Below are positions 5,699 through 45,905 of a stretch of 64,000 bases of DNA, one piece after another (position 1 is the stretch's first letter; each line of letters starts with the position of its first letter). The stretch lies in the NCBI RefSeq assembly GCF_002215035.1, contig NZ_NKFP01000001.1, positions 1,051,501 through 1,115,500 of the forward strand. Direction: 5' to 3'. The translations under genes and the position numbers were made by a program. The notes beneath the pieces were generated by a model that saw only the letters and a program-made list of their open reading frames with translations, did not search any database and was not told the origin of the DNA. Source of the DNA: Leptolyngbya ohadii IS1 (GTDB taxonomy: Bacteria > Cyanobacteriota > Cyanobacteriia > Elainellales > Elainellaceae).

Positions 5699-7092
5699 CC
5701 CTCTTCCATCATATTGGAGAGGAAAAATTAGACTAGAAGGGTGGTTCTTGCAGACGTGGAGGCGGTGATGGTAGAACCTCGTGCGGCTCGTCCTACCCTG
5801 CGCTTTGTCGATGAATATTGTGAATGGTATGCCCCGTTGTTTCCCGAAGTGCGAAGCTTTGAAGCCTTCAAATACCTGCATGTGGGCATGATCTCAGAAC
5901 TAAAACGCAAAACGCTACCAGCCATTGCGAAAGCAGTGGGCTTAGACAATGAGCAAGGCTTACACCACCTATTGACGAAATCGCCCTGGTCGGTGACGCG
6001 ATTGCGACAGATTCGCTTAAAGCTCATCCTCAAGCTCCTAGACGGGCAAGCCGTGATTCTGTTGATTGACGAAACGGGCGACTGTAAAAAGGGGAAGCAC
6101 ACCGATTACGTCAAGCGACAATACATCGGCAATGTGGGTAAGAAGGAAAATGGCATCGTGGCAGTGACCGCTTATGCCCTATTTCGTGGCATGATATTGC
6201 CCCTATCGTTTGAGGTTTACAAGCCCAAAGAGCGGCTCAAAGCGGGTGATGAGTACAAAACGAAACCGCAGATTGCTGCGGAGATGATCCGTGAACTGCT
6301 ATCGCTGGGATTTCGGTTTGAATTAGTGCTTGCCGATAGTCTGTACGGCGAAAGTAAAGTCAACTTTATCCGTGTATTGGAGTCGTTGAATCTGCCCTAC
6401 ATCGTGGCGATCCGGTCGAACCACGGGATGTGGTTGCCCCAAGACCAAGAGGTAACCTGTGAACCCTGGCAAGCCTTTCGGCGGACCTTTAGCAATGGCA
6501 AAACCGAAGTTCGCTATCGCAGCGAGATTATTTATGGGAAACGTCGAACGGTTCGCTACTGGTTGTTAACGACTAACCCACAAACGTTACCGGACAACTC
6601 AACCACTTATGTAATGAGCAATGCGCCGGAGGTCAAACTCGATGAGATTGGGGATCGCTACGGCGAACGAACCTGGATTGAGTATGGACTCAAGCAGAGT
6701 AAAGATGCTCTGGGATGGGCGGATTTTCGCGTGACCCATTACAAGCAGATTGAGCGATGGTGGGAGATTGTCATGAGTGCTTTCACGATGGTGAGTTTGT
6801 TCGCTGATGCCTTCAATCGGGAATGCCCTTTGTCTCACCAGATATTTGCCCAACACTCTTGGTGGAATAGCCAACGGGGTTGGAAACACCTGCTGAACAA
6901 CCTGCGCTTAGTGATTGAGCCCTGGATTGCTTTAAACCGACTCAAACCCTGGCTTGAGGTGTTTGAAATCCCATCCTTCATCCAGGGATTTATCCAATTA
7001 ATCCAGCGGATGCAGCAGTTTTATTGCCCCATCATGCATGACCTTTTGCTACGGCGCGTCCTCTTTAACTCTGCTTAAATGATGGAAGAGGG
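5699..7092 (+). mobile_element. IS701-family insertion sequence, copy 1
   Basis: A 1394-bp element with inverted ends CCCTCTTCCATCAT and ATGATGGAAGAGGG. It is flanked by a 4-bp duplication CTAA at 5695-5698 and 7093-7096, which fits the YTAR-type target of IS701. A second copy of the same length, encoding an identical transposase, lies at 44512-45905. Confidence 0.92.
5741..7078 (+). CDS. IS701-family DDE transposase
   Basis: A 445-residue full-length transposase, identical in sequence to the one encoded by the copy at 44526-45863. DDE features include ILLIDETGDCKKGKHTDYVK (first Asp), ELVLADSLYGES (second Asp) and the YGERTWIEYGLKQSKDALGW region, with the late Glu of the W-x-E type before LKQSK. 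It starts near the left end of the element and stops inside the right inverted repeat region. No frameshift is present, so this copy appears intact and able to supply transposase. The choice of start is uncertain by a few codons, because a second Met occurs at residue 10. Confidence 0.9.
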   Translation: MVLADVEAVMVEPRAARPTLRFVDEYCEWYAPLFPEVRSFEAFKYLHVGMISELKRKTLPAIAKAVGLDNEQGLHHLLTKSPWSVTRLRQIRLKLILKLLDGQAVILLIDETGDCKKGKHTDYVKRQYIGNVGKKENGIVAVTAYALFRGMILPLSFEVYKPKERLKAGDEYKTKPQIAAEMIRELLSLGFRFELVLADSLYGESKVNFIRVLESLNLPYIVAIRSNHGMWLPQDQEVTCEPWQAFRRTFSNGKTEVRYRSEIIYGKRRTVRYWLLTTNPQTLPDNSTTYVMSNAPEVKLDEIGDRYGERTWIEYGLKQSKDALGWADFRVTHYKQIERWWEIVMSAFTMVSLFADAFNRECPLSHQIFAQHSWWNSQRGWKHLLNNLRLVIEPWIALNRLKPWLEVFEIPSFIQGFIQLIQRMQQFYCPIMHDLLLRRVLFNSA

Positions 7093-15310: not shown

Positions 15311-17680
15311 CTAATTTACTACTTCTATAGGTTGTTCCAATACAGCCTGTAACGTTCCTAGTAAATCCTGAATGGTATAAGGCTTAGCAATAAAGCCCTT
15401 AACTTCGCTAGCTTCTCTCAATTTATCGTTAGCCATAAACCCACTCATGGCAATCACATTGATCCTTGGATTGATTCTTCGAAGGTACTGAATCGTTGTT
15501 GGACCATCCATAGATGGCATCATCATATCCACTAAAACAACGCTAATTTTATGTTTATTTTGAGCAAAAAGCGAAATTGCTTCAATTCCATCATTCGCTA
15601 TCAGCACATGATAATTATAGGCTTCTAATGAAGCTTTCGTTATTTCTAAAATTTCTGTTTCGTCATCTATGATAAGAACCCATTGTGCATCCCCATTTAA
15701 CTCATTAGAAGGTTCTTCTTTGGGAAAAACAGATGCTTCTACACTCGGTAGAAATACTCTAAACTCGGTTCCTTCGCCAACATCAGTATGAACATCGATG
15801 AATCCTCCATGGCTTTTAACAATACCTCTCACCGTAGAAAGCCCAAGCCCTGTCCCTTTACCAATTTCTTTCGTTGTAAAAAACGGTTCAAAAATTCTAT
15901 TTAAAATTTCAGATGGCATTCCAGTTCCTGTGTCCTTAATAAGGATTTCGATATAGGAACCGACGGATGCATCAAGATTCATACGGGCATGGTATTCATC
16001 TACAAACTGGTTTTTAGCAGAAATAGTGAGTGTGCCGCCATCAGGCATTGCATCACGAGCATTAACAATTAGATTCATCAACACTTGATGCAGATGGGTT
16101 GCATCTCCAGACACTGAATAAAGATACCGCTCTATATTAATCAGCAGCTTAATGGATTTAGGAAGCGTTTTCTCAGCAATTTGCTTGACTTCGTGAATTA
16201 AATCTTCTACTTGTACAATCGCCTGTTTACCCTCCACCCCACGTGCAAATTGAAGCACTTGCTTCACAAGCGAAGCTCCACGTTTCGTATTTGCTTCAAC
16301 GATTCTAAGCAAATGATGGCTTTGCTCGTCAGTATTGGGAAGCTTTAACTGTAATAGTTGTACTGTGCATAGAACAGGGGTCAGAATATTGTTGAGGTCA
16401 TGAGCAATGCCGCCTGCCAGGGTACCTAAACTTTCGAGCCGCTGTGCTCGCAAAAATTGGCTTTCGAGCTGTTTCTTTTCAGTAATGTCTGTATTGACTG
16501 TTAAGAAGGACTTCGGTTTTCCCTGTGCATCCCGCATTAAAGTCCAACGGCTGGCAACAATGATTTCTTTGCCCTGTTTATTGATTTGATGCAATTCACC
16601 TTGCCATGCACCCTGCTCGATCAAAGTGCTTTGAGAAATTTCAAGCTGCTTAAGCAAGTTTGGTCGGTATAAAAGTTGACTCGCATCTTGGTCGATCGCT
16701 TCTTCAGCGCTCCATCCGTAGATCAGTTCTGCTCCTTTATTCCAATACTGAATTTTGTTGTCTAAATTTCGCACGAGAATAGCATCTGTGGTGATGTTGA
16801 GTAAGGCTGCCTGTTCCCGAATCTTGTCTTCTGCCTGCTTGTGTTGAGTTAGGTTAAGGACAAAACCAACGATTGCCTGAGATTCATCGAGTAAAGCTCC
16901 GCCAAGCATGACAGGAATGCGGTGTCCGTCCTTGTGAAAATATTCTTTCTCAAAGGCACTAAATGCTCCAGTCTTAGCTAATTCTGCGATTGCGGCTTCA
17001 TGGAGGTGGATATATTCCGGAGGTGTCATTGCGTGCCAATTTAACTTCCCAGCTTTCAAGTCAGCGCGATCGTATCCAACAGTTTGGAGGAAGGCATCAT
17101 TGGCGTCTGTAATACTGCCATCTGCCAGGCTAAAAATAATGCCAATCACATTGGCTTCAATTAAACGCCTGAATCGGGCTTCGCTGCGTTGCAGTGCTCT
17201 GAATGCTTGTTCTCGCTCTGCTTCTAGCTGCTGGCGCTGCCGAATTTCTTTTTCTAACTGCTGATTCTGTTGAGTTAATCGCTTAGTTAGATTTTGCAGC
17301 CGAACGTGAGTATTGACTCGCGCTAAAACTTCTTCATGATGGAGCGGCTTAGTGATATAGTCAACTGCCCCAAGATTTAAGCCTTTGACTTTATTAACAT
17401 TGTCGCTAACAGCTGTGAGAAAAATGACTGGAATCTCTTGGGTTACCGCATTTGCTTTCAAGCGACGGCATGTTTCAAATCCGTCAATTCCAGGCATGAG
17501 AATATCTAGCAAAATTAGATCGGGTGGAGCGTATTCTGCTAGGGCGAGCGCTCTTTGCCCGTCTTCAGCCACGACCACCTTAAAACCAGCAGCCTCAAGT
17601 AAGTCGAGCAGCATCTCTAAATTCGTAGGTGAGTCGTCTACGATTAAAATTAAGCCTTTTTCCGTACTGTCTGTACTCAT
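15311..17680 (-). CDS. Hybrid sensor histidine kinase: REC-PAS-PAS-HisKA-HATPase-REC
   Basis: Start 17680 is chosen because AGGAG lies 6 bases upstream. The ATG two codons earlier would have no spacing. Order: receiver 1 (phospho-Asp D59 in LILLDILMPG), a coiled coil, PAS 1 (RLIEANVIGIIFSLADGSIT), PAS 2 (AILVRNLDNKIQYWNKGAEL), HisKA with H427 in GGIAHDLNNILTPV, HATPase with N (IVNARDAM), G1 (DTGTGMP) and G2 (GKGTGLGLS) boxes, and receiver 2 (D718 in VVLVDMMMPS). There is no membrane segment, so it is cytosolic. It starts 10 bp after the stop of the preceding kinase gene and is almost certainly cotranscribed with it. It may receive phosphate from, or act in parallel with, that kinase. Confidence 0.92.
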   Translation of the reverse strand: MSTDSTEKGLILIVDDSPTNLEMLLDLLEAAGFKVVVAEDGQRALALAEYAPPDLILLDILMPGIDGFETCRRLKANAVTQEIPVIFLTAVSDNVNKVKGLNLGAVDYITKPLHHEEVLARVNTHVRLQNLTKRLTQQNQQLEKEIRQRQQLEAEREQAFRALQRSEARFRRLIEANVIGIIFSLADGSITDANDAFLQTVGYDRADLKAGKLNWHAMTPPEYIHLHEAAIAELAKTGAFSAFEKEYFHKDGHRIPVMLGGALLDESQAIVGFVLNLTQHKQAEDKIREQAALLNITTDAILVRNLDNKIQYWNKGAELIYGWSAEEAIDQDASQLLYRPNLLKQLEISQSTLIEQGAWQGELHQINKQGKEIIVASRWTLMRDAQGKPKSFLTVNTDITEKKQLESQFLRAQRLESLGTLAGGIAHDLNNILTPVLCTVQLLQLKLPNTDEQSHHLLRIVEANTKRGASLVKQVLQFARGVEGKQAIVQVEDLIHEVKQIAEKTLPKSIKLLINIERYLYSVSGDATHLHQVLMNLIVNARDAMPDGGTLTISAKNQFVDEYHARMNLDASVGSYIEILIKDTGTGMPSEILNRIFEPFFTTKEIGKGTGLGLSTVRGIVKSHGGFIDVHTDVGEGTEFRVFLPSVEASVFPKEEPSNELNGDAQWVLIIDDETEILEITKASLEAYNYHVLIANDGIEAISLFAQNKHKISVVLVDMMMPSMDGPTTIQYLRRINPRINVIAMSGFMANDKLREASEVKGFIAKPYTIQDLLGTLQAVLEQPIEVVN

Positions 17681-17689
17681 AAACATCTC

Positions 17690-20104
17690 CTAAATCTGCT
17701 GCAAAAATTCCAAAATTTGCCGTCCCTTAAATTCTTTGGCAAGCTGCCATAGGTGGATGGCAAAAGGGCTCCACTGCTGATTCAATTCCTCTAATTGCGT
17801 TGCTCGTTTCGCAATAGCCCGTAAATCTCCTCGCATTGCTAAATCCCAAAAAATAGCAATCTCTTCTGCAGGCGGAACTGAAAAGGTAGGAGAAGCTGGC
17901 GAAAAACTCACTTGGCTGTTATTCTGCTTTTCCCTCTCCTGAAGAGGTTTCCCAGTTTTACTCTCACTCTCATAAATCCACTCCAGCTTCAAGTGTTCCT
18001 GCAATTTTTGAAGGAGATTGGCTTCTTGAATAGGTTTCGACAGAAAATCGTTGCAACCAACCTGAAGACTTTGCTGCTGATCAAATTCAAAAACGCTAGC
18101 CGAAACCGCAATCACAATCGTGTCTTTCAGCTCAGGCATTGATCTCAACCGACGGGTTGTCTCAAAACCATCAAGATTGGGCATCACTAAGTCCATCAAG
18201 ATAGCATCCGGCTGAAATATCTTCGCTTTATCCAGTGCATCTTGACCATCCACTGCGTCTAACACGTCAAATCCAATCGGTTCTAGAAGATTGACGAGGA
18301 CAGAACGATTTGTTGGCTTATCGTCTACGACTAAAATTTTCCGCGCTCTCCCTTTTACTCCCGCGATCGTGTCCTCTAAAACATGAGCAGTGTCTGTCGA
18401 TGAATGAGTGGTTGGCAGATCTAAATCAAACCAGAAGGTGCTGCCTGCTTCCAGAGTACTCTCGACCTGAAGCATGCCTTCCATCATTTCAACCAGTTGA
18501 CGGCTAATGGCTAGTCCTAACCCTGTTCCTTCTGGCTTGCGGCTATTTTCACCTACTTGCTGAAACGGCTTGAAAATCTCATCAAGCTGATGTGAGGCAA
18601 TGCCGATACCAGAGTCTTCAACTTGAAAGCGAATCTTCTGCTCGTGATACCCCACTCGAAAAATGATGGTTCCCGTTTCGGTAAATTTGACAGCATTGCC
18701 CAGCAGATTCAGCAAAACTTGGCGCAGGCGTTTGTCATCCGCATAAATTATCGCGGGGAGCGGAGACAGCATTTCATGAATTAACGAAATCCCTTTCTGT
18801 TCGGCTTTAATTTTGCAAATCTCGACAATACTTTGTAGGAATTCAGCAAAATGAAACTCTCTTGGATACAGTTCCATCCTCCGAGCTTCGATTTTAGACA
18901 AATCTAAAACGTCATTGATAAGCGTTAGCAGATGTTCTCCGCAGTGATGAATAGTTGCAATGCGGCTCTTTTGCTGTTTGGACAGAGTTGGGTCCTTTTG
19001 ACAAATTTGGGTATATCCTAGTATGCCATTAAGCGGTGTACGGAGTTCGTGGCTCATATTTGCTAAAAATTCGCTCTTAGCTTGATTGGCAGACTGGGCT
19101 ACTTCCTCTGCCCGTTGGCGATCGCGCACCTCTTGCTGAAGCTGTACGGTTCGTTCTTCCACTTTCGCTTCCAGGGTTTTACTGTAGTCCTCTAACTGTT
19201 CATGCGATCGTTTCAAATCAGTGTTAGCAACTGCCAAATCTTGATAAAGACGAGCATTCTCAATTGAGATCGCTGCCTGGGAAGATAAAAGCTGTAAAAC
19301 CTCTACTCGTTCTGCTGTAAAAGCACCCGTTGTTAAATTGTTTTCCAAATAGAGAATGCCAATCAGCTTGCCTTGATGTACGATCGGCACACATAAAACG
19401 GATTTAGGCTGGTGATCCAGAATATAGTCATCCGTTGTGAAAATTCCCTCACGGGTCGCATCATTCAGTACTATATTTCCCTGCGTTTGCCGCACATAAT
19501 TGATGATGGATAGCGGTAGCTGGCTGGCTTCTACAGGAATAGACTGTTGAACGATGATCTGATCTTGATTAACCTGTCCAGTCGCTTCAATAAAGAGTTT
19601 CGAGTCTTTTTCTAGAATTAAGATCCCTGTCTCTGCACCTGCATTTTCAAGCAAGATTTGCATCAACGTAGTTAACAAATTGCTCAAAACAATTTCACCT
19701 GAAAGAGCCTGTGCAGCTTTCATGACAGTGGCTAAATCCAGGTTGTAATTAGCTTCAGGATGATCGGTCGTTCTTGGAGAAATTGTTGTTTTTGTTCCGC
19801 TCCTGGCTAAAGTTCTGGGTAAAAATTGAGGAAATTTTTCTTCTAAATGCTCAACTTTAGCGTGAGCACCCCAAATTTGATAAGCATAATGTGCCTTTTG
19901 GAGATAAAGCTGGGCGATCGCATCTCTCCCCCATTCTAAATAACACTTACCTGCCAGCTCATACGCCAGTGCTTCTTCGTTCAAATATTCGTTTTCTTTA
20001 GCCAGAGCGATGGCTCTGTCATACAACTCCATTGCTTCTACTTTTTCATCTAAAACTCGATGCTTTTCTGCCTCTACTAGATAGAATTTATGCAAATGAT
20101 TCAT
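17690..20104 (-). CDS. GAF-histidine kinase-receiver; C-terminal half of a giant kinase split by an amber codon
   Basis: The N-terminal 110 residues are helical TPR-like repeats (AEKHRVLDEKVEAMELYDRA) that continue those of the upstream protein. Then come GAF (about 130-290), coiled coil, HisKA with H352 in FLANMSHELRTPLNG, HATPase (LLNLLGNAVKFTETG; DSGIGIA; GTGLGLAIS) and receiver with D638 in ILMDLVMPNLDG, plus ~90 extra residues. The frame is continuous with the gene ending at 20126: seven codons (KWAYHAP) separate the TAG from this ATG. Family members have these parts in one ~1800-2000-residue chain. Reinitiation at 20104 could still give a GAF-HK-REC protein, because no domain is lost. 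Whether it is made is unknown. Confidence 0.85.
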   Translation of the reverse strand: MNHLHKFYLVEAEKHRVLDEKVEAMELYDRAIALAKENEYLNEEALAYELAGKCYLEWGRDAIAQLYLQKAHYAYQIWGAHAKVEHLEEKFPQFLPRTLARSGTKTTISPRTTDHPEANYNLDLATVMKAAQALSGEIVLSNLLTTLMQILLENAGAETGILILEKDSKLFIEATGQVNQDQIIVQQSIPVEASQLPLSIINYVRQTQGNIVLNDATREGIFTTDDYILDHQPKSVLCVPIVHQGKLIGILYLENNLTTGAFTAERVEVLQLLSSQAAISIENARLYQDLAVANTDLKRSHEQLEDYSKTLEAKVEERTVQLQQEVRDRQRAEEVAQSANQAKSEFLANMSHELRTPLNGILGYTQICQKDPTLSKQQKSRIATIHHCGEHLLTLINDVLDLSKIEARRMELYPREFHFAEFLQSIVEICKIKAEQKGISLIHEMLSPLPAIIYADDKRLRQVLLNLLGNAVKFTETGTIIFRVGYHEQKIRFQVEDSGIGIASHQLDEIFKPFQQVGENSRKPEGTGLGLAISRQLVEMMEGMLQVESTLEAGSTFWFDLDLPTTHSSTDTAHVLEDTIAGVKGRARKILVVDDKPTNRSVLVNLLEPIGFDVLDAVDGQDALDKAKIFQPDAILMDLVMPNLDGFETTRRLRSMPELKDTIVIAVSASVFEFDQQQSLQVGCNDFLSKPIQEANLLQKLQEHLKLEWIYESESKTGKPLQEREKQNNSQVSFSPASPTFSVPPAEEIAIFWDLAMRGDLRAIAKRATQLEELNQQWSPFAIHLWQLAKEFKGRQILEFLQQI

Positions 20105-20125
20105 TGGGGCATGATACGCCCATTT

Positions 20126-23100
20126 CTATATTTTTTCTTGATTCGCTTGCACTTTGCCAAGAATATCCTGCTGCTCAAACTGTGCAGTCTCGGAATATAC
20201 AGCTAACCGTACTAGAGAATCATAGAAATAGAAGATAACAACCGTTAGCTGCCCTATAGATGCGCCGAAAGAACTTTCGATTTGAGGGATATGTTTCAAG
20301 GCTTCTGGGTGATTTTCAAACGCATAACAAAGCGCAAGTTTATGCAAGTATGAGTAATGAATCGCCAGTTGATCGTTGGTTTGCTGATGTAGCGACAGCA
20401 TTTGCTCTTCGTCGTAGGCTCCTCCCTTTAACTGGCATAGATTCTGGCTTCTGCCCATCATGTTTAAGACAGCTTGCCAACAAATTTTTGTATTATTAAG
20501 GGCTGTCTCTTGGCTGATTTGCTGAATGGCATCTATGTAAGTTGCTATTTCTCGTTCAAGTTGCATTAGTGGTTTGCCAACAAAAAACGAGTAATGGCTC
20601 CGCACCATGATGGCATAGCCAGCATATTCTAAGTCTCCGGTTTCCAGCCCGCTCGAAAAAACTGGCAGGAACGATTCTACAGTGTTTCTGGCATGTTCCT
20701 TCCAATGTTGAACGCCAGCATGCACCAAGTGGCGCGTCTTGGTTTCAATTTCTTTGGCATTTAACTTTGACACTAGATGTAGAGCTAATTGACCAAACTC
20801 ATAGCCCCGTTCAATATCTTCTACAGCCCCACACAGAAGAAGACTATATACGGCATACGCAAAGGGAGACACAGAAGCATTGCCATATTGCACAGATAAA
20901 TTGACCTGTTTGCATACCGTTAGAGGCACCAAAGAGGGCATCGCAGAATAGCAAGGAGAAAATGTACTCGACAGAATCCTTATCGCAGCTAGTTGATGAG
21001 GATCAGTCATTTCAGGGAGATCGATCAAGTCTCCAGTTCGCGTTCCGCTCAAAATTGCCGCAGTTTCCCCTAGTGCCTGCCCAATATCAAATGGACTTAG
21101 CGAGTTAGGAAACTCTATCCCCAACTGCTTCAAGACTTGCAACCCCGTATTCAACGCCTCCAGCAGCTTGTTCTGTCCCATATAAGCTTGAATCTGGACT
21201 TCATGTACTTTCACTATGTCCAATAGCGTTTTGGCAGAGTTTTGCACTATTTCAGCCAATCTCTGCATTTCTTCAAAATCACCCCTCAGAAATGCTGCTT
21301 CCGCTGCTTCGGTATGCAGTGATAATGTCAGTTCATATTCAGTATCCCAACTGAAATCCACTAATAGTTCCAAACCAGTTCGCAGATATTTAGTCGCGGC
21401 AGCGTAAGCCGTTGCTGCTTTTGCTTTCTGTCCAACAATTAAGTTAAGTTTAGCAATTTCAGTTCGTTCTACTTCACTCGCAACTAACTCAATTCCTAAG
21501 TTGAGGTGATCGACAATTCCAAATATCTTTTCTGATAATGTTTCTGGTGGCGTGTTTTGCCAGAGTAAACGACCAATTTGCAAATGAGTTGCCTGCTTAG
21601 AACCATCATCAATTAGTGCATACGCAGCTTGTTGCACTCGGTCATGAAGGAACCTCGCTTCTAGGCTTACTAAATGCGTCTTAACCAGGTCTTCAGATGC
21701 AAGCGTTAATTCAGAGGTTGGTAAGACTAAGCCTTCTTCAATCGTTGGCAACAGATCTTGATAGGTGTCAATTGGCGATCGCTTATAGATAATTGAAAGC
21801 GTCTGCAAGTCAAACCTGTTACCCATACAAGCCGCTAACTGCAATACCTGCTGAGTGGATTCAGGTGATTTCCGCAACTTCTGAATCATCAACTCAACAA
21901 CATTATCAGTAATATCAAGTGCCTCAATCTGGGCGATATCCCATTGCCAGCAAGGTTTATCTTCATTCAACGGAGTTGTGAAAGTTAACAGACCTTCTTG
22001 ATAGAGCGTCTTGAGAAATTGATTGACAAAGAAGGGATTGCCAGATGTTTTGCGGATGACTAATTCAGCCAACGGTTGAACGGCAATGGAGTCACTATGC
22101 AGCGTGTCAGCAATGAGATGGCTAATATCTGCGAGGGCTAAGGGAGCTAAGGTAATTTCATGAATAACAACGGCTTTAGAGCGTAGTGAATTAAGCGCCA
22201 TCATCAAGGAATGGTTTGGGCTGACTTCATTATCTCGGTATGCTCCAATTAAAAACAAATAGCCTGTTTCTGCATCGGTCAGAATCACATCCAGCAGTTT
22301 AAGCGTGGCAGAATCAGCCCATTGCAAATCGTCTAGAAACAGCACGAACGGGTGCTCTGGTGAGCAGAAAACACGGGTAAAGTTTTGAAAAACAAGATTA
22401 AATCGGTTTTGTGCTTCCGTTGGTGCCAGCTCTACAACAGCGGGTTGCTTACCAACAATCAGTTCTACGTCTGGAACAACATCAATAATGACTTGCGCAT
22501 TGTTACCCAGAACATCTAAAAGTTTAGTTCGCCATTTTGTGAGTTGTGTTTCGCTTTCAGTCAGCAGTTGTTTCACTAATGATTGAAAGGCAGTAATAAT
22601 CGCAGAGTAAGGAACATTGCGTTGAAATTGGTCAAATTTACCGGAGATAAAGTATCCTCTCGCGCCAACGATCGGTCTGCGGATTTCGCTCACCAACGAC
22701 GATTTACCAATGCCAGAGTAACCCTTGACCAGCATGGCTTCGGCTTTACCGGTACTAACGCGATTGTCCCGTGGACGCGCTATGCGAGCGAAGGTGCTCA
22801 TTAACAAACCCACTTCCCGATCGCGCCCATACAGCTTTTCTGGAATTGAGAATTGGCTAAATAAATCAAACTCTCCCACTTTGAGGTAGGAAATTGCACC
22901 GGAGACTTCCAGCATTTTTAGACAAATCTCTAAGTCAGCCTTTAGTCCAAGTGCACTTTGGTAACGGTCTTCTGCTGTTTTGGCGAGTAACTTCATGACA
23001 ATATTGGACACTGCCTCTGGAATATCCGAATTGACAAGATGAGGCGGAATTGGCGTTTTAGCAATGTGACAGTGAATGATCTCCAAGGTATCCGTCGCTG

Positions 23101-23743
23101 GGAACGGCAACTGCCCTGTCAACATCTCATAGAAGGTAACGCCTAGAGAATAAAAGTCAGTGCGATAGTCAATTGATCGGTTCATTCTCCCAGTCTGTTC
23201 TGGAGACATATAGGAGAGCGTACCCTCGAGAACGTTGACGTGGCTAATCGTTGAATTTTCTCTTGTTAAATGTGTAGCAGTACCAAAATCAATCAGCCTA
23301 ACTGCACCTGTTGTTGTGTTAACCAGAATATTGTCAGCTTTAATATCTTTGTGAATAATATGCTGCAAATGAATCTGTGCCAAAACTAAGGATAAGTGAA
23401 TTGCAATTTGTAAAGAAATATTTAAGTTGAGTTGTCGTGTGGCGATCGCTTTAGCTAACGATTCGCCATCAAAATCAGACAGAATTAGGGCTAGCCCACA
23501 ACCATTATTTTCTAACGCTAAAGGCTTAATAATTTCTTCAGATTCTAGGTCTTTCAGAATTTGGTATTCATGTCTCAATCGAGTCAGTTGCTCAACTGTT
23601 GGATACTCAGCTCTCAGTGTTTTTATAATGACAGAGGTAAGTTCTAGATCGCTCTTAGACGCTGTCTTAGCTCGGTAAACGCGGCTAATTTCTCCTTCAT
23701 ATAAAACTTCGAGCAAGTCATAGCCAGCGATCGTAGTACTCAT
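20126..23743 (-). CDS. Ser/Thr protein kinase-AAA ATPase; N-terminal half of the split giant kinase
   Basis: 1205 residues. Protein kinase domain ~10-270: glycine loop LYEGEISRVYRA, catalytic loop HIIHKDIKADNILV, and LIDFGTA. Then a PknK/MalT-like AAA module with Walker A in VKGYSGIGKSSLVSEI and Walker B in FVLFLDDLQWADSATLKLLD, and a long helical TPR region to the end. It stops at TAG (20126-20128) directly before codons for KWAYHAPMNHLHKF. In this family the text here reads close to MQKWA.HAPMN.LHKFYLVEAE, so the stop occupies a conserved Gln position (CAG to TAG). The promoter region is 23744-23944. Members integrate Ser/Thr and His kinase signalling, and heterocyst and stress roles are known for some. 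Confidence 0.9.
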   Translation of the reverse strand: MSTTIAGYDLLEVLYEGEISRVYRAKTASKSDLELTSVIIKTLRAEYPTVEQLTRLRHEYQILKDLESEEIIKPLALENNGCGLALILSDFDGESLAKAIATRQLNLNISLQIAIHLSLVLAQIHLQHIIHKDIKADNILVNTTTGAVRLIDFGTATHLTRENSTISHVNVLEGTLSYMSPEQTGRMNRSIDYRTDFYSLGVTFYEMLTGQLPFPATDTLEIIHCHIAKTPIPPHLVNSDIPEAVSNIVMKLLAKTAEDRYQSALGLKADLEICLKMLEVSGAISYLKVGEFDLFSQFSIPEKLYGRDREVGLLMSTFARIARPRDNRVSTGKAEAMLVKGYSGIGKSSLVSEIRRPIVGARGYFISGKFDQFQRNVPYSAIITAFQSLVKQLLTESETQLTKWRTKLLDVLGNNAQVIIDVVPDVELIVGKQPAVVELAPTEAQNRFNLVFQNFTRVFCSPEHPFVLFLDDLQWADSATLKLLDVILTDAETGYLFLIGAYRDNEVSPNHSLMMALNSLRSKAVVIHEITLAPLALADISHLIADTLHSDSIAVQPLAELVIRKTSGNPFFVNQFLKTLYQEGLLTFTTPLNEDKPCWQWDIAQIEALDITDNVVELMIQKLRKSPESTQQVLQLAACMGNRFDLQTLSIIYKRSPIDTYQDLLPTIEEGLVLPTSELTLASEDLVKTHLVSLEARFLHDRVQQAAYALIDDGSKQATHLQIGRLLWQNTPPETLSEKIFGIVDHLNLGIELVASEVERTEIAKLNLIVGQKAKAATAYAAATKYLRTGLELLVDFSWDTEYELTLSLHTEAAEAAFLRGDFEEMQRLAEIVQNSAKTLLDIVKVHEVQIQAYMGQNKLLEALNTGLQVLKQLGIEFPNSLSPFDIGQALGETAAILSGTRTGDLIDLPEMTDPHQLAAIRILSSTFSPCYSAMPSLVPLTVCKQVNLSVQYGNASVSPFAYAVYSLLLCGAVEDIERGYEFGQLALHLVSKLNAKEIETKTRHLVHAGVQHWKEHARNTVESFLPVFSSGLETGDLEYAGYAIMVRSHYSFFVGKPLMQLEREIATYIDAIQQISQETALNNTKICWQAVLNMMGRSQNLCQLKGGAYDEEQMLSLHQQTNDQLAIHYSYLHKLALCYAFENHPEALKHIPQIESSFGASIGQLTVVIFYFYDSLVRLAVYSETAQFEQQDILGKVQANQEKI

Positions 23744-23944
23744 CTTCTTCTTTGTACTGATAGTACGAGTAAATGATTAGTGTTCGAGTTTCATCTATAT
23801 TTAGCGCAACAAAGATAGTTTGATTAGCCTTCAGACACAATGAAATTAGTTGGAGAGCGGTCATTTCTACTCCTACGATAGATGGCATACTTTGGAGCTG
23901 TAGTGAGAGCAATAATACTTTACTTGTTAATACTTAATACAGAG

Positions 23945-24575
23945 TCAGACACCCCCAGCGAAGCTGGTAGACTGATGAGTGTGACCGCCCCAAGGTCAGG
24001 TAAAGTTTGCTAGAGGGTCTGAGCTTAGTTAAAAGCGCCCGCTTTGGTCAGCGGCTTCCTGCTCATGAATATAACGACATACCACCTCCTCTTCAAATCC
24101 GACTGTTGACACGGCATAGCCTCGCGCCCAGAAATTCTCACCTTCAAAGTTGCGTTGCTTGCCTCGAAATTGGCGCACAATCGCAATTGCACTTTTGCCC
24201 TTGAGGAATCCAATCACAGAGGCAACTGATTGTTTGGGCAGAATTTCGATGCACCTGTGTACAGGCTTAGGCAGCAGATGCCCTTCCACAATCCGGCACT
24301 CCTTTTGACGCACCAGTTCATGGAAAATTGGTTCCTAATATTGGCGAATCTCTAAAAACATTGCTTTGCGACGGTATTTAGGTACAAATACGACATGGTA
24401 CTTGCAGTCCCACTTGCTGTGAGAAAGGCTTTGATAGAATTCAGACACGTTGTTTTCCTCCTACGGTTTTGCTCATCAACCACCGTGGGAGTTACTCTAC
24501 GCCCGGAACGCTCAAAGCTATGCGAGTCGCACTGGTAGAACCAGTGGCTTACCCCAAAGGCTCAGCTACATCAGA
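23945..24575 (-). mobile_element. IS200/IS605-family element, tnpA only, degenerate
   Basis: The element carries subterminal hairpins in place of inverted repeats, as expected for this family. CCAGC-GAA-GCTGG (23955-23967) is at the transposase 3' side. CACTGGT-AGA-ACCAGTG (24530-24546) is at the 5' side. No tnpB is present. Exact ends are uncertain. Confidence 0.7.
24029..24448 (-). pseudogene. IS200-family TnpA (Y1 transposase), inactivated
   Basis: An excellent ribosome site AGGAGG precedes GTG at 24448. The frame starts VSEFYQSLSHSKWDCKYHVV and FVPKYRRKAMFLEIRQY, then meets TAG at 24335-24337 (codon 38), then continues EPIFHELVRQKECRIVEGHLLP. The HUH metal motif, expected as D-H-V-H, reads KPVHRC, so the first His is lost. 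Later conserved parts remain (SVIGFLKGKSAIAI and GYAVSTVG). Both the stop and the lost His indicate a dead gene. Hairpins that would serve a related TnpA in trans remain. Confidence 0.85.
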
Positions 24576-24664: not shown

Positions 24665-25540
24665 GGGTAGTGTCTTAGATTTGTTGACGGTATAAACTAG
24701 AGGCAGCTGCAAGCTCTCCATTTCCCCTATCTGCGCTATGGCACTCATTCCAGTCACTTGTCCCCATTGTCAGAATGAACAGTTCGTCGTCAAAAACGGC
24801 AAAACAGCCCAAGGCAAACAGCGATTCCTCTGTCGCTCTCAAAGCTGCCAAGGACGCACCTTTATGCTCAACCCGTCTTACCCAGGACGGACTCCTGCTG
24901 TCAAAGCGCAAATTGTGGCGATGAGCCTTAATGGCAGTGGGATTCGAGACATTGCCAGAGTGCTACAGGTGAGTACGCGAACCGTGATGGGAGAACTTAA
25001 AAAAACAGGAAGTGCTGAAAACGGTCAATGAACCGCTATTACAGCAGATTAAACCTGAGCAAGTGGAGGTCGAGATTGTCTGAGTTGGGTTTTTAGCCGA
25101 GGATGAAGCAGTAGAGAGCGAGCTAGACGAAATGTGGAGTTTCGTCCAGGAGAAGGCGAATCAACGATGGCTATGGTGGGCAATTGACCATCAAAGTCGA
25201 AAAGTATTAGCGTATGTATTTGGGAATCATAGTGATGCAGTGTTCAAGAAGCTGCAAGCTCTGTTAGAGCCATTTGGGATTCAGAAGTTTTACACCGATG
25301 GATGGGGAGCTTATGAACGATGTTTAGAAGCTAAACAGCATCAAGTTGGAAAAGCAAATACCCAAAGAATAGAACGTAAGCATTTAACGTTAAGAACAAG
25401 GATCAAGAGATTAGCCAGAGAGACAATCTGCTTTTCTAAGTCTGAGCAGATGCACGACACAGTGATTGGGCTGTATATCAATCGTTACGAGTTCGGGCTT
25501 CAGATTTAATTGAAGTATCAACAAATGTAAAACACTACCC
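24665..25540 (+). mobile_element. IS1-family insertion sequence, second type
   Basis: Terminal repeats: left GGTAGTGTCTTAGATTTGTT and right (minus strand) GGTAGTGTTTTACATTTGTT, 2 differences in 20. It belongs to the same family as the element at 1549 but is a different member. Its right end overlaps the truncated 3' end of the amidohydrolase gene. Confidence 0.85.
24738..25509 (+). pseudogene. IS1-family transposase with frameshift and internal stop
   Basis: The InsA part has a CPHC finger (VTCPHCQNEQFVVKNGKTAQ) and HTH (GIRDIARVLQVSTRTV). At an A7 run (about 24998-25004) the frame leaves the family sequence. Shifting by one base restores KKQEVLKTVNEPLLQQIKPE and then EQVEVEIV, followed by a TGA, then VGFLAEDEAVESELDEMWSF. 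The catalytic DDE region from 25132 is intact: LDEMWSFV, FYTDGWGAYE and RIERKHLTLR. One A-run frameshift could be programmed, but the TGA at about 25079 is an additional block. The element is probably inactive. Confidence 0.8.
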
Positions 25541-26248
25541 CTGAAAATACTCTACTGTGACCCGCTGCGGTGCCGAGCAGGACAGAGCCGCCCCCAGTCG
25601 TCCCCCGTAGCTGCCGTGCCAGCGATCGATCAAATGGTGATAAAGCTGCATCAATTCCGCGCTGGATTGCCGGGGAGCTGCCTGCATCTGCTGACGAATT
25701 TCGTCGGGCAACAGGGATTTGAGAAAGGGAAACTTGTCGTACTCCACCACGTTTGGCTGATCCAGCGTAACGATCGCCCGCATTCCGCTCTCGCCATACG
25801 CCTGCATCACAGAATCGATCGCCTCCAGGCTGGCAACGGGAACGAAGAAAGCATCATCATGGACGCTCGTAATTCCCAGCTTCAGCATCTCGATCGCCCC
25901 CAGCATCGTTCGCACATAGTTCAGGCGTGGGGTCGGCAGGGCATCGCTCAGCGGCGGCACTTCGTAGAGCATAAAAATCTCCAGCGGGGAGCCGTCTAAC
26001 GCCCCTTTCATCAAATTGCCGGGTGAGTGTAGATGCCCATTGATCAGACCGGGCATGGCGAGCAACCCTGTTGCCTCAATGATTCGCAGGTCAGGATCGG
26101 GGGGAACTGCCAGTCCGGGGGCGATCGCTGTGATTTGCGCTCCTTCAATCAGAATATCGGCTTGCAGATACTCCGTATCCTGGTCGTCCATCGTCAGGAC
26201 TCTGGCGTTGCGAATCAAAATAGACATATTGAATTGATGGTCGGACAA
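25535..26248 (-). pseudogene. Amidohydrolase (TrzN/SsnA-like), 3' truncated
   Basis: 237 residues of an enzyme that should be about 450. The N-terminal composite barrel strands are followed by the HxH metal pair in GLINGHLHSPGNLMKG (H72, H74), then GITSVHDDAFFVP. The later metal His and the Asp are missing. The frame is cut by the end of the IS1 element, and the TAG stop is supplied by the IS terminal bases. Start may be 26248 or the better-aligned Met at 26227. Four bases upstream of 26248 begins a MITE-like element carrying an IS630, so the native promoter is also displaced. The remaining amidohydrolase part was not found on the other side of the IS1. Confidence 0.85.
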
Positions 26249-26270: not shown

Positions 26271-27559
26271 GTACTTGGCGGCAGAAGTAAACCTATTATT
26301 GAGGGGTAGGGTTTAGAGAATGCTGTATGCCTGGACGCCGCCCGCAATCGTTGAGTTTGACCGAGAGTGAAAAAGCCAGCCTCGAACAGATCGTCAAACG
26401 TCCGAGTACGCCGCAGCAGATCGCGCAACGGGGACGCATCGTGCTGAAAGCCAATGAAGGCAAGAATCATGCTCAGATCGCGCGTGAGTTAGATATCAGT
26501 CTGGATATGGCAAGGCTATGGCGACACCGCTGGTTAGAGTTAGCCGAGAGCAACTTGCCGATAGCAGAGCGATTATCCGATGCTGAACGTCCGGGCGCAC
26601 CAGCGAAATTTACACTGGAACAACAGGTGCAATTAATGGCAATCGCTTGTGAAGACCCAGGGTTAAGCGGACGACCGATTAGCCATTGGACGGGGCGGGA
26701 GCTGGCGGATGAGTTAGTCAAACGGGGCATTGTCGAAAGTATTAGTCCGCGTCATGTGGAACGGTTGCTGGAGCAAGCCGAAATCAAACCGCACAAAAGC
26801 CGTTACTGGCTTCACCCCCCCCTACGACCCAGAATTTGAGACGAAAGTGGCTGAAGTCTCGCAACTGTACCTGGACGCGCCAACGCTGTTGCAGCAAGGA
26901 GAACGGGTGATATCAATCGACGAGATGACGGGGATTCAAGCCTTGCAACGCCAGTACACTGATGCACCAACTCGTCCGGGGCAGGTCCAGAAACGCGAGT
27001 TTGAGTACATTCGGCATGGCACGCAATGTTTGATTGCCAACTTTGATGTCGCCACTGGCAGCATTGTCAGTCCCACGATTGGTGAGCGTCGCACTGAAGC
27101 CGATTTTGCCGCTCATGTGCAACAACTCCTGACAAGTGACAAGAGTGTGCAACGCTGGCATTTGGTAAGTGATTGTCTCAACACTCATCAGTCTGAGAGC
27201 TTAGTGCGTCTAGTGGCACAGTGGGAAGGCATCGACACTGACTTGGGCATCAAAGGCAAGTGTGGGATTCTGCAATCGATGCACTCCCGTGCTGCGTTCT
27301 TATCCGACCCCACGCATCGCATTGTCTTCCACTACACGCCTAAACATTGCTCCTGGCTGAATCAAATTGAGGTGTGGTTCAGTATTTTGACGCGAAAACT
27401 GTTGAGGCGTGGCAACTTCTGCTCGAAAGCCGACTTGAAGGGGCAACTTTTAGCGTTCATTGACTACTTCAACCAGACGATGGCAAAGCCCCTGCAATGG
27501 ACGTTTAAGGGTAAATTGTTGGTAATCTAATTCGTTGGCTTACTTGTGCCGCCAAGTAC
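26271..27559 (+). mobile_element. IS630-family insertion sequence
   Basis: The ends are GTACTTGGCGGCAGAAGTAA and, on the minus strand, GTACTTGGCGGCACAAGTAA. They are flanked by TA dinucleotides (26269-26270 and 27560-27561), as for IS630/Tc1 elements. It sits inside the left terminal repeat of the MITE-like element. Confidence 0.88.
26327..27530 (+). pseudogene. IS630-family transposase in two overlapping frames
   Basis: The first frame (26327-26839) holds the HTH_29/32 part (NHAQIARELDISLDMARLWR) and runs to KPHKSRYWL. It is broken at a C8 run (26815-26822). The second frame takes over as [20 protein letters not shown] and continues to 27530 with the DDE residues in [21 protein letters not shown] and [13 protein letters not shown]. 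All catalytic residues are present. Because many IS630 elements make transposase by frameshifting between two frames, this may be programmed slippage on the C-run rather than damage. The sequence alone does not decide. Confidence 0.75.
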
Positions 27560-40164: not shown

Positions 40165-41994
40165 ATGTCAACTTCGGATAATCGTCTCAGTGGGATCCAG
40201 AGTTCACGGAAATTCAACCTCGGTATTTTGACAAAGCGTAGCTGGAGCGATCGGGTCGGCGGTACAGACCGTGAGGATCTGCGACGCTTTGAATTAAAGC
40301 AATCTAGCCAATTGAGCGTTGACCTTTCAGGCAATATAACGTTTAAACTTTACACACTTGCAGATCGTTGGAAGGAGCAGGAGAGGGAAGTCCTTAAAAA
40401 AATCGGTAATCGAGATTTCAAACTTATTCCTAGAAAGATACGCAATACTTACCTGCGTCCTGTTACTCCTGCTGAGTACAGTAACCTACAACCGAGCGTT
40501 TACTTTTCCTCTGTCTTACCACGACGGGGGAACGTTCCTTACCGGATCACGCTTAGCGCTAGTCCAGTTCCTCCAGCACCGCTTCCTCCAACGCCACCCA
40601 GTGATACTCAGGCTCCAACAGCGACACTAAATCCCATTCCCCTACCTCCTGGGGGTGCAACGCTTGAATTCTCTGTTACTTATTCTGACGATCGCAGTCT
40701 TAACCCAACAACTTTTGATGACAACGATATTGTCGTCATCGCCCCAAACAATTCAACGCTTCAGGCAACACGTAAAACCGTAAATGACAGCACCGTAACT
40801 TACAGCATCATTGCACCAGGCGGCACCTGGGATAGCGTAGACAATGGCATTTATACCGTTAATCTACAGACTGGTCAGGTAAGCGATACGGGTGGTAATT
40901 TTGCGGCAGCGGCTACGTTAGACAGGTTTCAGGTCAACATTGGCTCTTCTCAAGCGCAGGGAGTCAACATTGCAATCAGGAATACTCCCGCTCCCGGTTC
41001 CGCCCGGTACTATGAGTTCGATTTTTCACGCCTTCAAGAGGAAGGTGGAGTATTTAGGGGTGCTTTGGTGAAGTCTATTTTGGGAGGTTCAAGCATAACT
41101 TACTCTAAATCTGACAGTCCGTTGACCCTAGCTGATGGTACAACCATTCGACCAGGCGATTTAATCTCTTTCAGGCAGGGAAATTCCATTATATACCGGG
41201 GCATACTTGTGAGTGGGGAACCGAAAGTTCTGTACGTCGGCTTCAGAGTCACTTCGCCTGCTAGTTCTAATTCGTTAGAACCACTTAGAGAAGCAGCTTT
41301 AGTAGGACAAGTTGAGATACGTTCTGCTGAAAATACTTCTCTTCCAAGCCTTAGAAATAACCCATCATTGGATACTTATCTTTTCAGTCAATTGCCCTTC
41401 TACAGTCTCAGCTCAGAGGCAATAAGTTACTCCCTAGTAGAGGCGGCACCCGTTAACAACGTTTTAGGTAATTCCAGAGATAATACAATCATTGGCAATT
41501 CTTCGAGTAATGAGTTAGCAGGGTTGGAAGGAAACGATCGACTGGAGGGTGGGGCAGGAAATGACCGCCTGTATGGTGGTTTAGGAAACGATGTCCTACT
41601 GGGAGGGTCGGGCAATGATGTACTAGTGGGGTTTGCTAACAATAGTGATGATCCTGCTATGCAAGGCACAGGCGAAATTGATTTGTTGATTGGTGGTGCT
41701 GGTAACGATACTTTTGCCTTAAAAGTACGTTATCCCCCTGGCATTGCTACTTATGTAGAAACGTCAGGCGATGGATATGCGCTCATTCAGGACTTACAGC
41801 CTGGCGATAAGATTGAGCTAGAGCAATTTAATTCCTCCTTTCCATTAGAGATAGTTCCCGGAGTAAATGCAGGGGTAGGAAGCTCCGCTAAGCCAGATAC
41901 GGAGATTTATCTAGTCAGGAGTGGCATTAGAAACCGAATTGCGATTATCCAGGACGTGACGATTGAAACCCTTAGCAGTGATTACTTCATTTAG
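40165..41994 (+). CDS. Pre-peptidase-like/RTX calcium-binding extracellular protein
   Basis: 609 residues. The N-terminal part (DNRLSGIQSSRKFNLGILTK, then the DREDLRRFELKQSSQLSVDL strand pattern) resembles the PPC-type beta domain. Then comes a Pro-rich linker and a domain with (T/A)APTA..NP and GGTWDSVDNGIYTVNL, the same as in the paralogue at 46417. The C-terminal third has RTX nonapeptides (NELAGLEGNDRLEGGAGNDR, LYGGLGNDVLLGG) with calcium-binding GGxGxD units. There is no signal peptide, as expected for RTX export by a type I system, which is not in the window. It is paired with the TPS exoprotein gene 22 bp downstream, and the pair is duplicated downstream. Confidence 0.82.
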   Translation: MSTSDNRLSGIQSSRKFNLGILTKRSWSDRVGGTDREDLRRFELKQSSQLSVDLSGNITFKLYTLADRWKEQEREVLKKIGNRDFKLIPRKIRNTYLRPVTPAEYSNLQPSVYFSSVLPRRGNVPYRITLSASPVPPAPLPPTPPSDTQAPTATLNPIPLPPGGATLEFSVTYSDDRSLNPTTFDDNDIVVIAPNNSTLQATRKTVNDSTVTYSIIAPGGTWDSVDNGIYTVNLQTGQVSDTGGNFAAAATLDRFQVNIGSSQAQGVNIAIRNTPAPGSARYYEFDFSRLQEEGGVFRGALVKSILGGSSITYSKSDSPLTLADGTTIRPGDLISFRQGNSIIYRGILVSGEPKVLYVGFRVTSPASSNSLEPLREAALVGQVEIRSAENTSLPSLRNNPSLDTYLFSQLPFYSLSSEAISYSLVEAAPVNNVLGNSRDNTIIGNSSSNELAGLEGNDRLEGGAGNDRLYGGLGNDVLLGGSGNDVLVGFANNSDDPAMQGTGEIDLLIGGAGNDTFALKVRYPPGIATYVETSGDGYALIQDLQPGDKIELEQFNSSFPLEIVPGVNAGVGSSAKPDTEIYLVRSGIRNRIAIIQDVTIETLSSDYFI

Positions 41995-44511
41995 CCGTGC
42001 TTAGCAGTTAAAACCTGTGAAAACTATATCAACCCTTACAGGAGCAGTTTTTTGGAGTCTGTTCAGTAGTACCACAATTGCTCAGATTGTCCCGGATACT
42101 TCTCTGCCTAGTTCATCAGCGGTATCACCCGGCTGTGTCAACTGCATTATATCGGGCGGAACTCAGTCGGGGCGTAATCTGTTTCACAGCTTTGAGCGGT
42201 TTTCAGTTCCGGATGGGGGAAGGGCTTATTTCAACAACTCAGCATTGGTACAGAATATCTTTGCTAGAGTGACAGGGCGATTGCGCTCCAACATCAACGG
42301 TGAAATTCGAGCCAACGGTAGTGCCAATTTATTTCTGCTGAATCCCAACGGTATTATTTTTGGTCGCAATGCCTCGTTGAATATTGGTGGTTCATTCTAT
42401 GCTGCAACGGGTGATCGCATCCGGTTTCAAGACGGTTTTGAATTCTCTGCCAACCCAGTTTCTCCCTCATCACTCCTTACTGTCAGTGTCCCCATCGGCA
42501 TCCAGTTTGGGCAGAATCCAGGGCGGATCATTAATGGCTCTCAGGCAAGTCGGAATGGATTTGTCAACACACGGGGAGAACCTGCTGGCTTACAGGTGGG
42601 AACGGGACAAAATCTTGTTCTTTTAGGGAGGGGCGTCTATCTGGATAATGGCAATTTGACTGCGCGATCGGGAGGAATATCAATTATAGGCATTGCGCCT
42701 TTAAGCCAGGTTGAATTGACTCGTGACGGAGAGAGCAGATTTACACCAACCTACAGCAACCCATTAAACTTATCAGATATTGAGTTAACAAGCAGTCAGA
42801 TCGACACCAGCGGTTTTGAAAATAGTAGTTTTGAAAACACCAGTACGCTGCCTACATCAAATCAAAGCGGAGGTGCAATCCAACTTTGGGGAAGAAATAT
42901 CTCGCTGAGCAATGAATCCATTATTACCTCCAGTAGCTATGCATTAACGGGTGGCAATCTACAGGCGTTTGGATCAGAATCCATTGTGCTGTCCAATCAG
43001 TCTTCGCTAGGCACGTTTGCAGAGCGGGTAGGAAACGCAGGAGATGTGCTTGTTCGTACCAGGGACTCTATTACTCTCACAGACATTAGTTCCATTGCAT
43101 CCCAAGCCCGTGAAAATTCTTCAGGAAATGCAGGAAATCTCTCAATTCAAACCGGGCAATTGTTGGTTCGGAGCGGTTCTGCGATCGAGGCTTCTACTTT
43201 TGGTCAAGGGCGTGGAGGTAACATTCGCATTCAGGCAACAGCAATGGAAGTTACGGGAGCAAATCGGCGGGCTTTCGTAGACCTCTATGGCAACCACATT
43301 GCACCAGGCATGAGTCCGAGCAGTATTTCTTCTCAAGCTGATACGACCAGTGGAGAATTGGGCGCAGGGGATATCACGATCGATACTCAGCGTTTGCAAG
43401 TTACTGATGGAGGATTTATTTCTTCAGCCACTTTTTCTCCTGGAGATGGAGGTAATTTAACAATCAATGCGAGTGAATCGATCATGATTTCTGGAACGTC
43501 CCGCTTTCCAACTCGCAACGAGCGTCGTAGCGGTGTTTTTGTCTCCGCAGAACCCGAAGCAATGGGCAACGTTGGGGAACTGAATATTAATGTCGATCGC
43601 CTGGCGGTTGAGGATCGAGCAGAGATTTCTGCTAAAAATCGGGGTTCGGGTCAGCCAGGGTTGGCAACGCTTAATGTGGGTGATTTAACGGTGCAGGGGG
43701 GAGGCGAAATTAGCGCCAGCACATTAGACGGAACGGGCAACGGCGGAACGCTGCGAATCAACGCCGATCGAATTTTGGTTACGGGCAGCGGCATGATTGA
43801 GGCTGAGCAAATTCCAAGCGGCATCTCTGCCAGTTCAGTTTTTCTGGGCAACGCAGGGAACCTGAACATCAGTGCATCCCGTATCATTGTTGAAGATGGC
43901 GCAGAGATTTCTGTAAGTGGTGATAATTTGGGCGCGGCAGGGAATATGACGATCGCCGCAGAGCAAATTCTATTAAATCGGGGCAGACTTTCAGCCTCAA
44001 TTCAAAATGGGAGCGGTGCAAATATCAGCCTCCGAGACTCAGATATATTACTGTTGCAGGGAGAGAGCCGTATTTCAGCCAGTGCTTCTGATGATGCGGT
44101 CGGTGGCAACGTGGATATTTTTACACCAAATGGTACGGTTGTAGCGACAAACAGCAATAATGATATTCTGGCGAACGCGGTTAGGAGCCGGGGCGGCAAT
44201 ATTACGATCGAAGCCCAAACTATTCTTGGATTGGAAGAACGTCGATCGCTTCCGGTAAACACGACAAACGATATTGATGCCAGCTCCCAGTTTGGTGCCC
44301 CTGGTACTGTTACCTTTATTACGCCGGACGTTGATCCCAGCCGAGGCACTGCCGCACTGCCGATCGAAATTGTCGATGCTTCTCAGCTCATTGCGGGAAA
44401 CTGTCTGACAACGGGTAACACTGCTAGAGCCAGAGGCGAGTTTACGATTACCGGACGGAGCGGTTTACCTGCCAGCCCGATCGATGTTTTGAGAGCGGAA
44501 ATGCTGCTTAC

Positions 44512-45905
44512 CCCTCTTCCATCATTTAAGCAGAGTTAAAGAGGACGCGCCGTAGCAAAAGGTCATGCATGATGGGGCAATAAAACTGCTGCATCCGCTG
44601 GATTAATTGGATAAATCCCTGGATGAAGGATGGGATTTCAAACACCTCAAGCCAGGGTTTGAGTCGGTTTAAAGCAATCCAGGGCTCAATCACTAAGCGC
44701 AGGTTGTTCAGCAGGTGTTTCCAACCCCGTTGGCTATTCCACCAAGAGTGTTGGGCAAATATCTGGTGAGACAAAGGGCATTCCCGATTGAAGGCATCAG
44801 CGAACAAACTCACCATCGTGAAAGCACTCATGACAATCTCCCACCATCGCTCAATCTGCTTGTAATGGGTCACGCGAAAATCCGCCCATCCCAGAGCATC
44901 TTTACTCTGCTTGAGTCCATACTCAATCCAGGTTCGTTCGCCGTAGCGATCCCCAATCTCATCGAGTTTGACCTCCGGCGCATTGCTCATTACATAAGTG
45001 GTTGAGTTGTCCGGTAACGTTTGTGGGTTAGTCGTTAACAACCAGTAGCGAACCGTTCGACGTTTCCCATAAATAATCTCGCTGCGATAGCGAACTTCGG
45101 TTTTGCCATTGCTAAAGGTCCGCCGAAAGGCTTGCCAGGGTTCACAGGTTACCTCTTGGTCTTGGGGCAACCACATCCCGTGGTTCGACCGGATCGCCAC
45201 GATGTAGGGCAGATTCAACGACTCCAATACACGGATAAAGTTGACTTTACTTTCGCCGTACAGACTATCGGCAAGCACTAATTCAAACCGAAATCCCAGC
45301 GATAGCAGTTCACGGATCATCTCCGCAGCAATCTGCGGTTTCGTTTTGTACTCATCACCCGCTTTGAGCCGCTCTTTGGGCTTGTAAACCTCAAACGATA
45401 GGGGCAATATCATGCCACGAAATAGGGCATAAGCGGTCACTGCCACGATGCCATTTTCCTTCTTACCCACATTGCCGATGTATTGTCGCTTGACGTAATC
45501 GGTGTGCTTCCCCTTTTTACAGTCGCCCGTTTCGTCAATCAACAGAATCACGGCTTGCCCGTCTAGGAGCTTGAGGATGAGCTTTAAGCGAATCTGTCGC
45601 AATCGCGTCACCGACCAGGGCGATTTCGTCAATAGGTGGTGTAAGCCTTGCTCATTGTCTAAGCCCACTGCTTTCGCAATGGCTGGTAGCGTTTTGCGTT
45701 TTAGTTCTGAGATCATGCCCACATGCAGGTATTTGAAGGCTTCAAAGCTTCGCACTTCGGGAAACAACGGGGCATACCATTCACAATATTCATCGACAAA
45801 GCGCAGGGTAGGACGAGCCGCACGAGGTTCTACCATCACCGCCTCCACGTCTGCAAGAACCACCCTTCTAGTCTAATTTTTCCTCTCCAATATGATGGAA
45901 GAGGG
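44512..45905 (-). mobile_element. IS701-family insertion sequence, copy 2
   Basis: 1394 bp, the same length as the copy at 5699-7092 and in reverse orientation. It has inverted ends CCCTCTTCCATCAT/ATGATGGAAGAGGG. The target duplication is TTAC at 44508-44511 and 45906-45909. Confidence 0.92.
44526..45863 (-). CDS. IS701-family DDE transposase
   Basis: 445 residues, identical to the product encoded at 5741-7078. It is intact, with LIDETGDCKKGK and VLADSLYGES as the catalytic landmarks. Its position inside the TPS gene, and the identity of the two proteins, show a recent transposition. Confidence 0.92.
   Translation of the reverse strand: MVLADVEAVMVEPRAARPTLRFVDEYCEWYAPLFPEVRSFEAFKYLHVGMISELKRKTLPAIAKAVGLDNEQGLHHLLTKSPWSVTRLRQIRLKLILKLLDGQAVILLIDETGDCKKGKHTDYVKRQYIGNVGKKENGIVAVTAYALFRGMILPLSFEVYKPKERLKAGDEYKTKPQIAAEMIRELLSLGFRFELVLADSLYGESKVNFIRVLESLNLPYIVAIRSNHGMWLPQDQEVTCEPWQAFRRTFSNGKTEVRYRSEIIYGKRRTVRYWLLTTNPQTLPDNSTTYVMSNAPEVKLDEIGDRYGERTWIEYGLKQSKDALGWADFRVTHYKQIERWWEIVMSAFTMVSLFADAFNRECPLSHQIFAQHSWWNSQRGWKHLLNNLRLVIEPWIALNRLKPWLEVFEIPSFIQGFIQLIQRMQQFYCPIMHDLLLRRVLFNSA

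What the first reader, a model, noticed from the sequence alone, without database searches (positions are those of the whole stretch)
20120..20140. One in-frame TAG splits a giant Ser/Thr kinase-histidine kinase into two complete-looking halves
The kinase-AAA frame ends at TAG (20126-20128). The same frame then continues through KWAYHAPMNHLHKF into the GAF-HisKA-REC gene. The two frames are in phase: the distance between the two start codons, 23743 to 20104, is 3639 nt, which is divisible by three. Family memory of this region is ...MQKWA.HAPMN.LHKF..., so the stop replaces a conserved Gln (CAG to TAG) with a single base change. An ATG lies eight codons after the stop, and every domain is intact on one side or the other. 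It may therefore be a functional two-protein split rather than a dead gene.
Basis: partly seen in the sequence, partly recalled or inferred. Interest (0 to 1): 0.72.

Follow-up and report, generated by a model that had tools for sequence, protein, structure and literature searches.

The report
Nonsense mutation in cyanobacterial dual kinase
In one cyanobacterial strain a single premature stop codon cuts a giant two-headed signalling kinase, whole in every close relative examined, into two reading frames; this is most likely an ordinary recent gene-breaking mutation and not a new kind of two-protein system.

Summary
On the minus strand a TAG at 20126-20128 ends a 1205-aa Ser/Thr kinase-AAA frame, and the same frame continues into an 804-aa GAF-HisKA-HATPase-REC ORF. 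Orthologues in the same genus and family, with the same operon partner downstream, are single ORFs of about 2020 aa and carry CAG or CAA (Gln) at this codon. Of the 64 places read codon by codon, this locus alone has a stop there. It belongs to the known HstK/cbSTKIII dual-kinase family.

The "two complete halves" reading is weaker. The ATG after the stop is a Met conserved as an amino acid in most homologues (APMN), not a new start. The stop lies inside a helix of one continuous, confidently predicted TPR-like solenoid, so it cuts a domain. TAG is an ordinary terminator in this window, and no amber-suppressor tRNA turned up among the tRNA genes recovered. dN/dS is low on both sides, so the stop is either recent or tolerated, and DNA alone cannot say which. 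The neighbourhood is full of insertion-sequence debris.

An unflagged feature: the gene is a recombinant mosaic, and the stop sits near the right edge of a swapped solenoid segment.

Most likely a recent nonsense mutation; functional split, sequencing error and readthrough are less likely.

The parts
20126..23743 (-). N-terminal ORF, 1205 aa: Ser/Thr kinase (residues 10-262), AAA_16 ATPase (303-499), then most of a TPR-like alpha-solenoid
20126..20128 (-). in-frame TAG at codon 1206, where orthologues carry CAG or CAA (Gln)
17690..20125 (-). frame after the stop: last ~5 solenoid helices, GAF, HisKA, HATPase_c, REC; natural end at TAG 17690-17692
20102..20104 (-). first in-frame ATG after the stop (Met1214); conserved as an amino acid (APMN) in intact homologues, weak Shine-Dalgarno pairing
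15311..17686 (-). operon partner, 791-aa REC-PAS-HisKA-HATPase-REC hybrid kinase; follows the kinase directly in G000, G001, G004 and G024
20144..21226 (-). recombinant (G004-type) part of the solenoid, about codons 840-1200; right edge diffuse, about codons 1200-1230, close to the stop
23741..23945 (-). upstream stretch kept at 90% identity with G001 (probable promoter region)

Best explanation
This is a single-copy HstK/cbSTKIII-type dual kinase (Ser/Thr kinase - AAA ATPase - TPR-like solenoid - GAF - histidine kinase - receiver) hit by one recent nonsense substitution (Gln codon to TAG) in this strain. Termination inside a solenoid helix should yield a truncated 1205-aa kinase-ATPase and uncouple it from the histidine kinase; the downstream ORF is then translated poorly or not at all. 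Shown: the stop, the intact orthologues, the conserved Gln, the helix position in a predicted model, purifying selection averaged over both sides, and no suppressor tRNA among the tRNA genes recovered. Inferred: that the base is real, that the stop is recent, and that the full-length function is lost.
For: The stop is present only in this genome. Orthologues with the same downstream partner gene are uninterrupted. TAG is a common normal terminator here (10 of 24 window genes). No tRNA with a CUA anticodon appears in the scanned loci covering the 68 tRNA matches. The stop falls in helix 489-512 of a 641-residue solenoid model, local pLDDT about 97. Pairwise dN/dS in the post-stop half (0.11-0.15 against G001, G004, FACHB-63 and Gloeocapsa) is like that between intact genes, as expected if the stop is recent. 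Surroundings are IS debris, including an IS200-like remnant with its own in-frame TAG. Nonsense pseudogenes are documented in another IS-rich cyanobacterium, Anabaena sp. 90, where three of 19 histidine kinases are pseudogenes (PMC3542288).
Against: No second disabling mutation in either ORF, the upstream ~200 bp is conserved, and all listed catalytic domains score normally, so a working two-piece state is not excluded. No reads were available.
Confidence: 0.64

Rival explanations
1. Functional two-protein split: terminating ribosomes reinitiate at ATG 20104 (or start there on their own), and the halves act separately or reassemble through the cut solenoid.
For: An in-frame ATG lies 21 nt after the stop, both ORFs are open and all catalytic domains are intact. 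The ATG falls at the start of the next solenoid helix. Several window ORFs taken as genes also lack strong Shine-Dalgarno pairing.
Against: The Met is conserved in intact homologues, so it is no adaptation. Shine-Dalgarno pairing is weak at -3.1 kcal/mol, against about -6 to -7 for the next gene of the operon. An out-of-frame ATG two bases after the stop competes. No promoter-like site in 19900-20700. No homologue among those listed is split here.
Confidence: 0.17
2. Sequencing or assembly error at a single base.
For: One substitution in one assembly, and the rest of the gene is intact.
Against: The assembly is contiguous (8 contigs, 100% complete) and the gene is single copy at this identity. 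An isolated C/T substitution is not the typical long-read error, which is an indel (general knowledge; the sequencing platform is not known).
Confidence: 0.13
3. Amber readthrough or suppression yields some full-length kinase.
For: The frame continues in phase, and some leaky readthrough is possible in any bacterium (general knowledge).
Against: No suppressor tRNA found (only 150 of 339 tRNA candidates were scored). TAG is an ordinary terminator here. No conserved signal, since relatives have no stop.
Confidence: 0.06

Closest known systems
HstK / cbSTKIII dual kinases of cyanobacteria (HstK, Phalip et al. 2001, known here only as cited in PMC2176072; cbSTKIII survey PMC2176072)
   Same: Ser/Thr kinase domain at the N-terminus, GAF plus HisKA at the C-terminus, several paralogues per filamentous genome
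   Different: A TAG interrupts the frame before the GAF-HisKA part; this member also ends in a receiver domain and is followed by a second hybrid kinase gene
Nonsense-mutation pseudogenes in IS-rich cyanobacteria (Anabaena sp. 90, PMC3542288)
   Same: One premature stop in an otherwise intact signalling gene, in a region full of IS elements
   Different: No reads or expression data here, so the pseudogene status is inferred

Membership tests
HstK / cbSTKIII dual kinase | Ser/Thr kinase catalytic domain at the N-terminus | tested here: met
   Pkinase E=7e-37, residues 10-262 of the first ORF
HstK / cbSTKIII dual kinase | GAF and histidine kinase domains in the C-terminal part | tested here: met
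   GAF, HisKA and HATPase_c in the second ORF
HstK / cbSTKIII dual kinase | both kinases on one polypeptide | tested here: not met
   TAG at codon 1206 in this genome; met in orthologues G001, G004 and G024. So it is a disrupted descendant of the family, not an intact member
Nonsense pseudogene | stop absent from orthologues and inside a conserved domain | tested here: met
Nonsense pseudogene | relaxed selection or further lesions after the stop | tested here: not met
   No further stop or frameshift; dN/dS 0.11-0.15 in 1260-2017. G000-lineage amino-acid excess is mostly not significant (51 vs 35, chi2 3.0; one of six comparisons reaches 6.9). Fits a recent stop or a still-used half
Nonsense pseudogene | loss of the product | not testable with these tools
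   needs transcript and protein data
Programmed stop readthrough or amber recoding | suppressor tRNA, or a stop conserved among relatives | tested here: not met

The most novel reading that the evidence does not exclude
The stop has produced a working two-protein Ser/Thr kinase and histidine kinase pair from a fused ancestor, by reinitiation at a pre-existing conserved Met at a helix boundary, possibly tolerated because recombination had replaced the adjoining solenoid segment: a natural fission of a dual kinase caught early.
Probability: 0.12. Interest if true: 0.45.

Novelty: new member of a known kind. Interest (0 to 1): 0.17.

Why it matters
If the base is real, this strain is a natural test of whether the Ser/Thr kinase and histidine kinase parts of an HstK-type protein must be on one chain. 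Otherwise it is an ordinary disrupted paralogue. The recombinant solenoid segment matches, at finer scale, the domain shuffling already proposed for this family (PMC2176072).

Tried and rejected
A second stop between the kinase and the next hybrid kinase gene: the genome search reports a ~2800-aa open frame in both G000 and G001, but direct ORF listing shows the kinase ending in both genomes (2023 aa in G001), so 17690 is the natural end. Other apparent in-frame stops in histidine kinases of this genome (L009, L015) are alignment run-on past normal gene ends. A stop in a G034 paralogue (L046) is real but roughly 90-120 codons upstream of this point, so it is not a shared split site. No close plasmid-borne copy. 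No Rfam element in the window.

Full report
The observation. The minus strand reads ...AAT CAA GAA AAA ATA TAG AAA TGG GCG TAT CAT GCC CCA ATG AAT CAT... The TAG is at 20126-20128, the frame opens at ATG 23743 (1205 aa), and the next in-frame ATG at 20104 opens an 804-aa ORF. With TAG read as a residue the frame is one 2017-residue protein. Pfam puts Pkinase and AAA_16 before the stop, and GAF, HisKA, HATPase_c and Response_reg after it. The gene directly downstream, 15311-17686, is a second hybrid histidine kinase.

What relatives show. The window lies in a 7.9-Mb cyanobacterial genome in 8 contigs. G004 and G024 do too, and in all three the same hybrid kinase gene follows. At codon 1206 the orthologues carry CAG or CAA. 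More distant homologues have Gln, Lys, Arg and a few other residues, and of the 64 places read only this locus (fetched twice, as L001 and L031) has a stop there. In 36 genomes of the family about 100 matches to a 266-aa junction piece were listed; the only other stop, in G034, is roughly 90-120 codons upstream. In 291 genomes of the class, every listed match to a 135-aa junction piece is open except the query locus. So the fused gene is the normal state and the stop is derived.

The signs of a functional split. The Met at 20104 belongs to the conserved motif APMN(H/Y/F)LHK(F/Y), present in most intact homologues, so it is kept as an amino acid. Pairing of the upstream 20 nt with an assumed anti-Shine-Dalgarno sequence is -3.1 kcal/mol, weaker than for the next gene of the operon (-6 to -7) but within the range of other window ORFs; this is inconclusive. 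An out-of-frame ATG two bases after the stop opens an 11-codon ORF across the candidate start. No promoter-like site was found in 19900-20700. An AlphaFold2 model of residues 700-1340 (mean pLDDT 91) is one continuous alpha-solenoid with TPR-like PDB matches at low TM-scores. Codon 1206 is model residue 507, inside helix 489-512, so the stop removes about five helices from the solenoid and leaves them on the second ORF.

Recoding. TAG ends 10 of 24 window genes counted. ARAGORN on loci covering the 68 tRNA matches found no CUA anticodon, although only 150 of 339 tRNA candidates were scored. Amber suppression is therefore unlikely.

Selection. Pairwise Nei-Gojobori dN/dS is 0.14-0.21 for residues 1-690 and 0.11-0.15 for 1260-2017 in comparisons with G000, like those between intact genes. 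Relative-rate counts show a slight excess on the G000 lineage on both sides, mostly not significant. The sequence after the stop has not evolved neutrally for long, so the stop is recent or that half is still used. DNA from one strain cannot separate these.

Mosaic structure (not in the finding). For residues 1-690 G000 groups with G001 (91-95% DNA identity per 100 codons, bootstrap 100). Over about 780-1200 G000 groups with G004 (bootstrap 100) and is only 51-76% identical to G001, which groups with FACHB-63. After about 1230 the DNA is again of the G001/FACHB-63/Gloeocapsa type. The left edge is diffuse (755-840), and so is the right (1200-1230); the stop lies in that right edge zone. Homologous recombination within the solenoid is the simplest reading. 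Its nearness to the stop may be coincidence.

Surroundings. The ~200 bp upstream of the kinase are 90% identical to G001. Beyond them lie an IS200-like transposase remnant with its own in-frame TAG and an IS1-like element. Many other transposase-like genes lie in the window (families named by eye, not by search).

Verdict. The family is known: HstK/cbSTKIII dual kinases (PMC2176072). In another cyanobacterium, Anabaena sp. 90, about 5% of genes are pseudogenes, about 10% of those by nonsense mutation, and three of 19 histidine kinases are broken (PMC3542288). A recent nonsense mutation is the best reading; functional split, sequencing error and readthrough follow. Interest is low to moderate.

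Noticed in passing
window 20144-21226 (codons ~840-1200), compare L016, L032, L066: Recombinant middle segment of the kinase gene: groups with G004 (bootstrap 100), while codons 1-690 group with same-genus G001 (bootstrap 100). The solenoid looks exchanged between two allele types in the family.
   Followed up: partly
window 24029-24445 (-): IS200-like transposase remnant (SEFYQSLSHSKWDCKYHVVFVPKYRRKAM...) with an in-frame TAG and an altered HUH-like motif (PVHR), about 300 bp upstream of the kinase start.
   Followed up: partly
window 24665-25540: IS1-like element bounded by GGGTAGTGTTTTAC.../...ACACTACCC, next to a truncated amidohydrolase (25535-26248); an IS630-like two-ORF transposase (26327-27530) lies on its other side.
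   Followed up: no
window 5741-7078 and 44526-45863: Two copies of a 445-aa IS4-like transposase with identical listed translations, in opposite orientation 38 kb apart; a possible recombination or inversion substrate.
   Followed up: no
L046 1573-1575 (G034:C14): A different HstK-type paralogue in another genome has its own in-frame TAG in the same solenoid, roughly 90-120 codons upstream of the point studied here.
   Followed up: partly
window 40165-50545: Two tandem pairs of a pre-peptidase/calcium-binding-like secreted protein gene followed by a filamentous-haemagglutinin-type secretion protein gene, with the IS4-like copy lying between the pairs. Identified by eye only.
   Followed up: no
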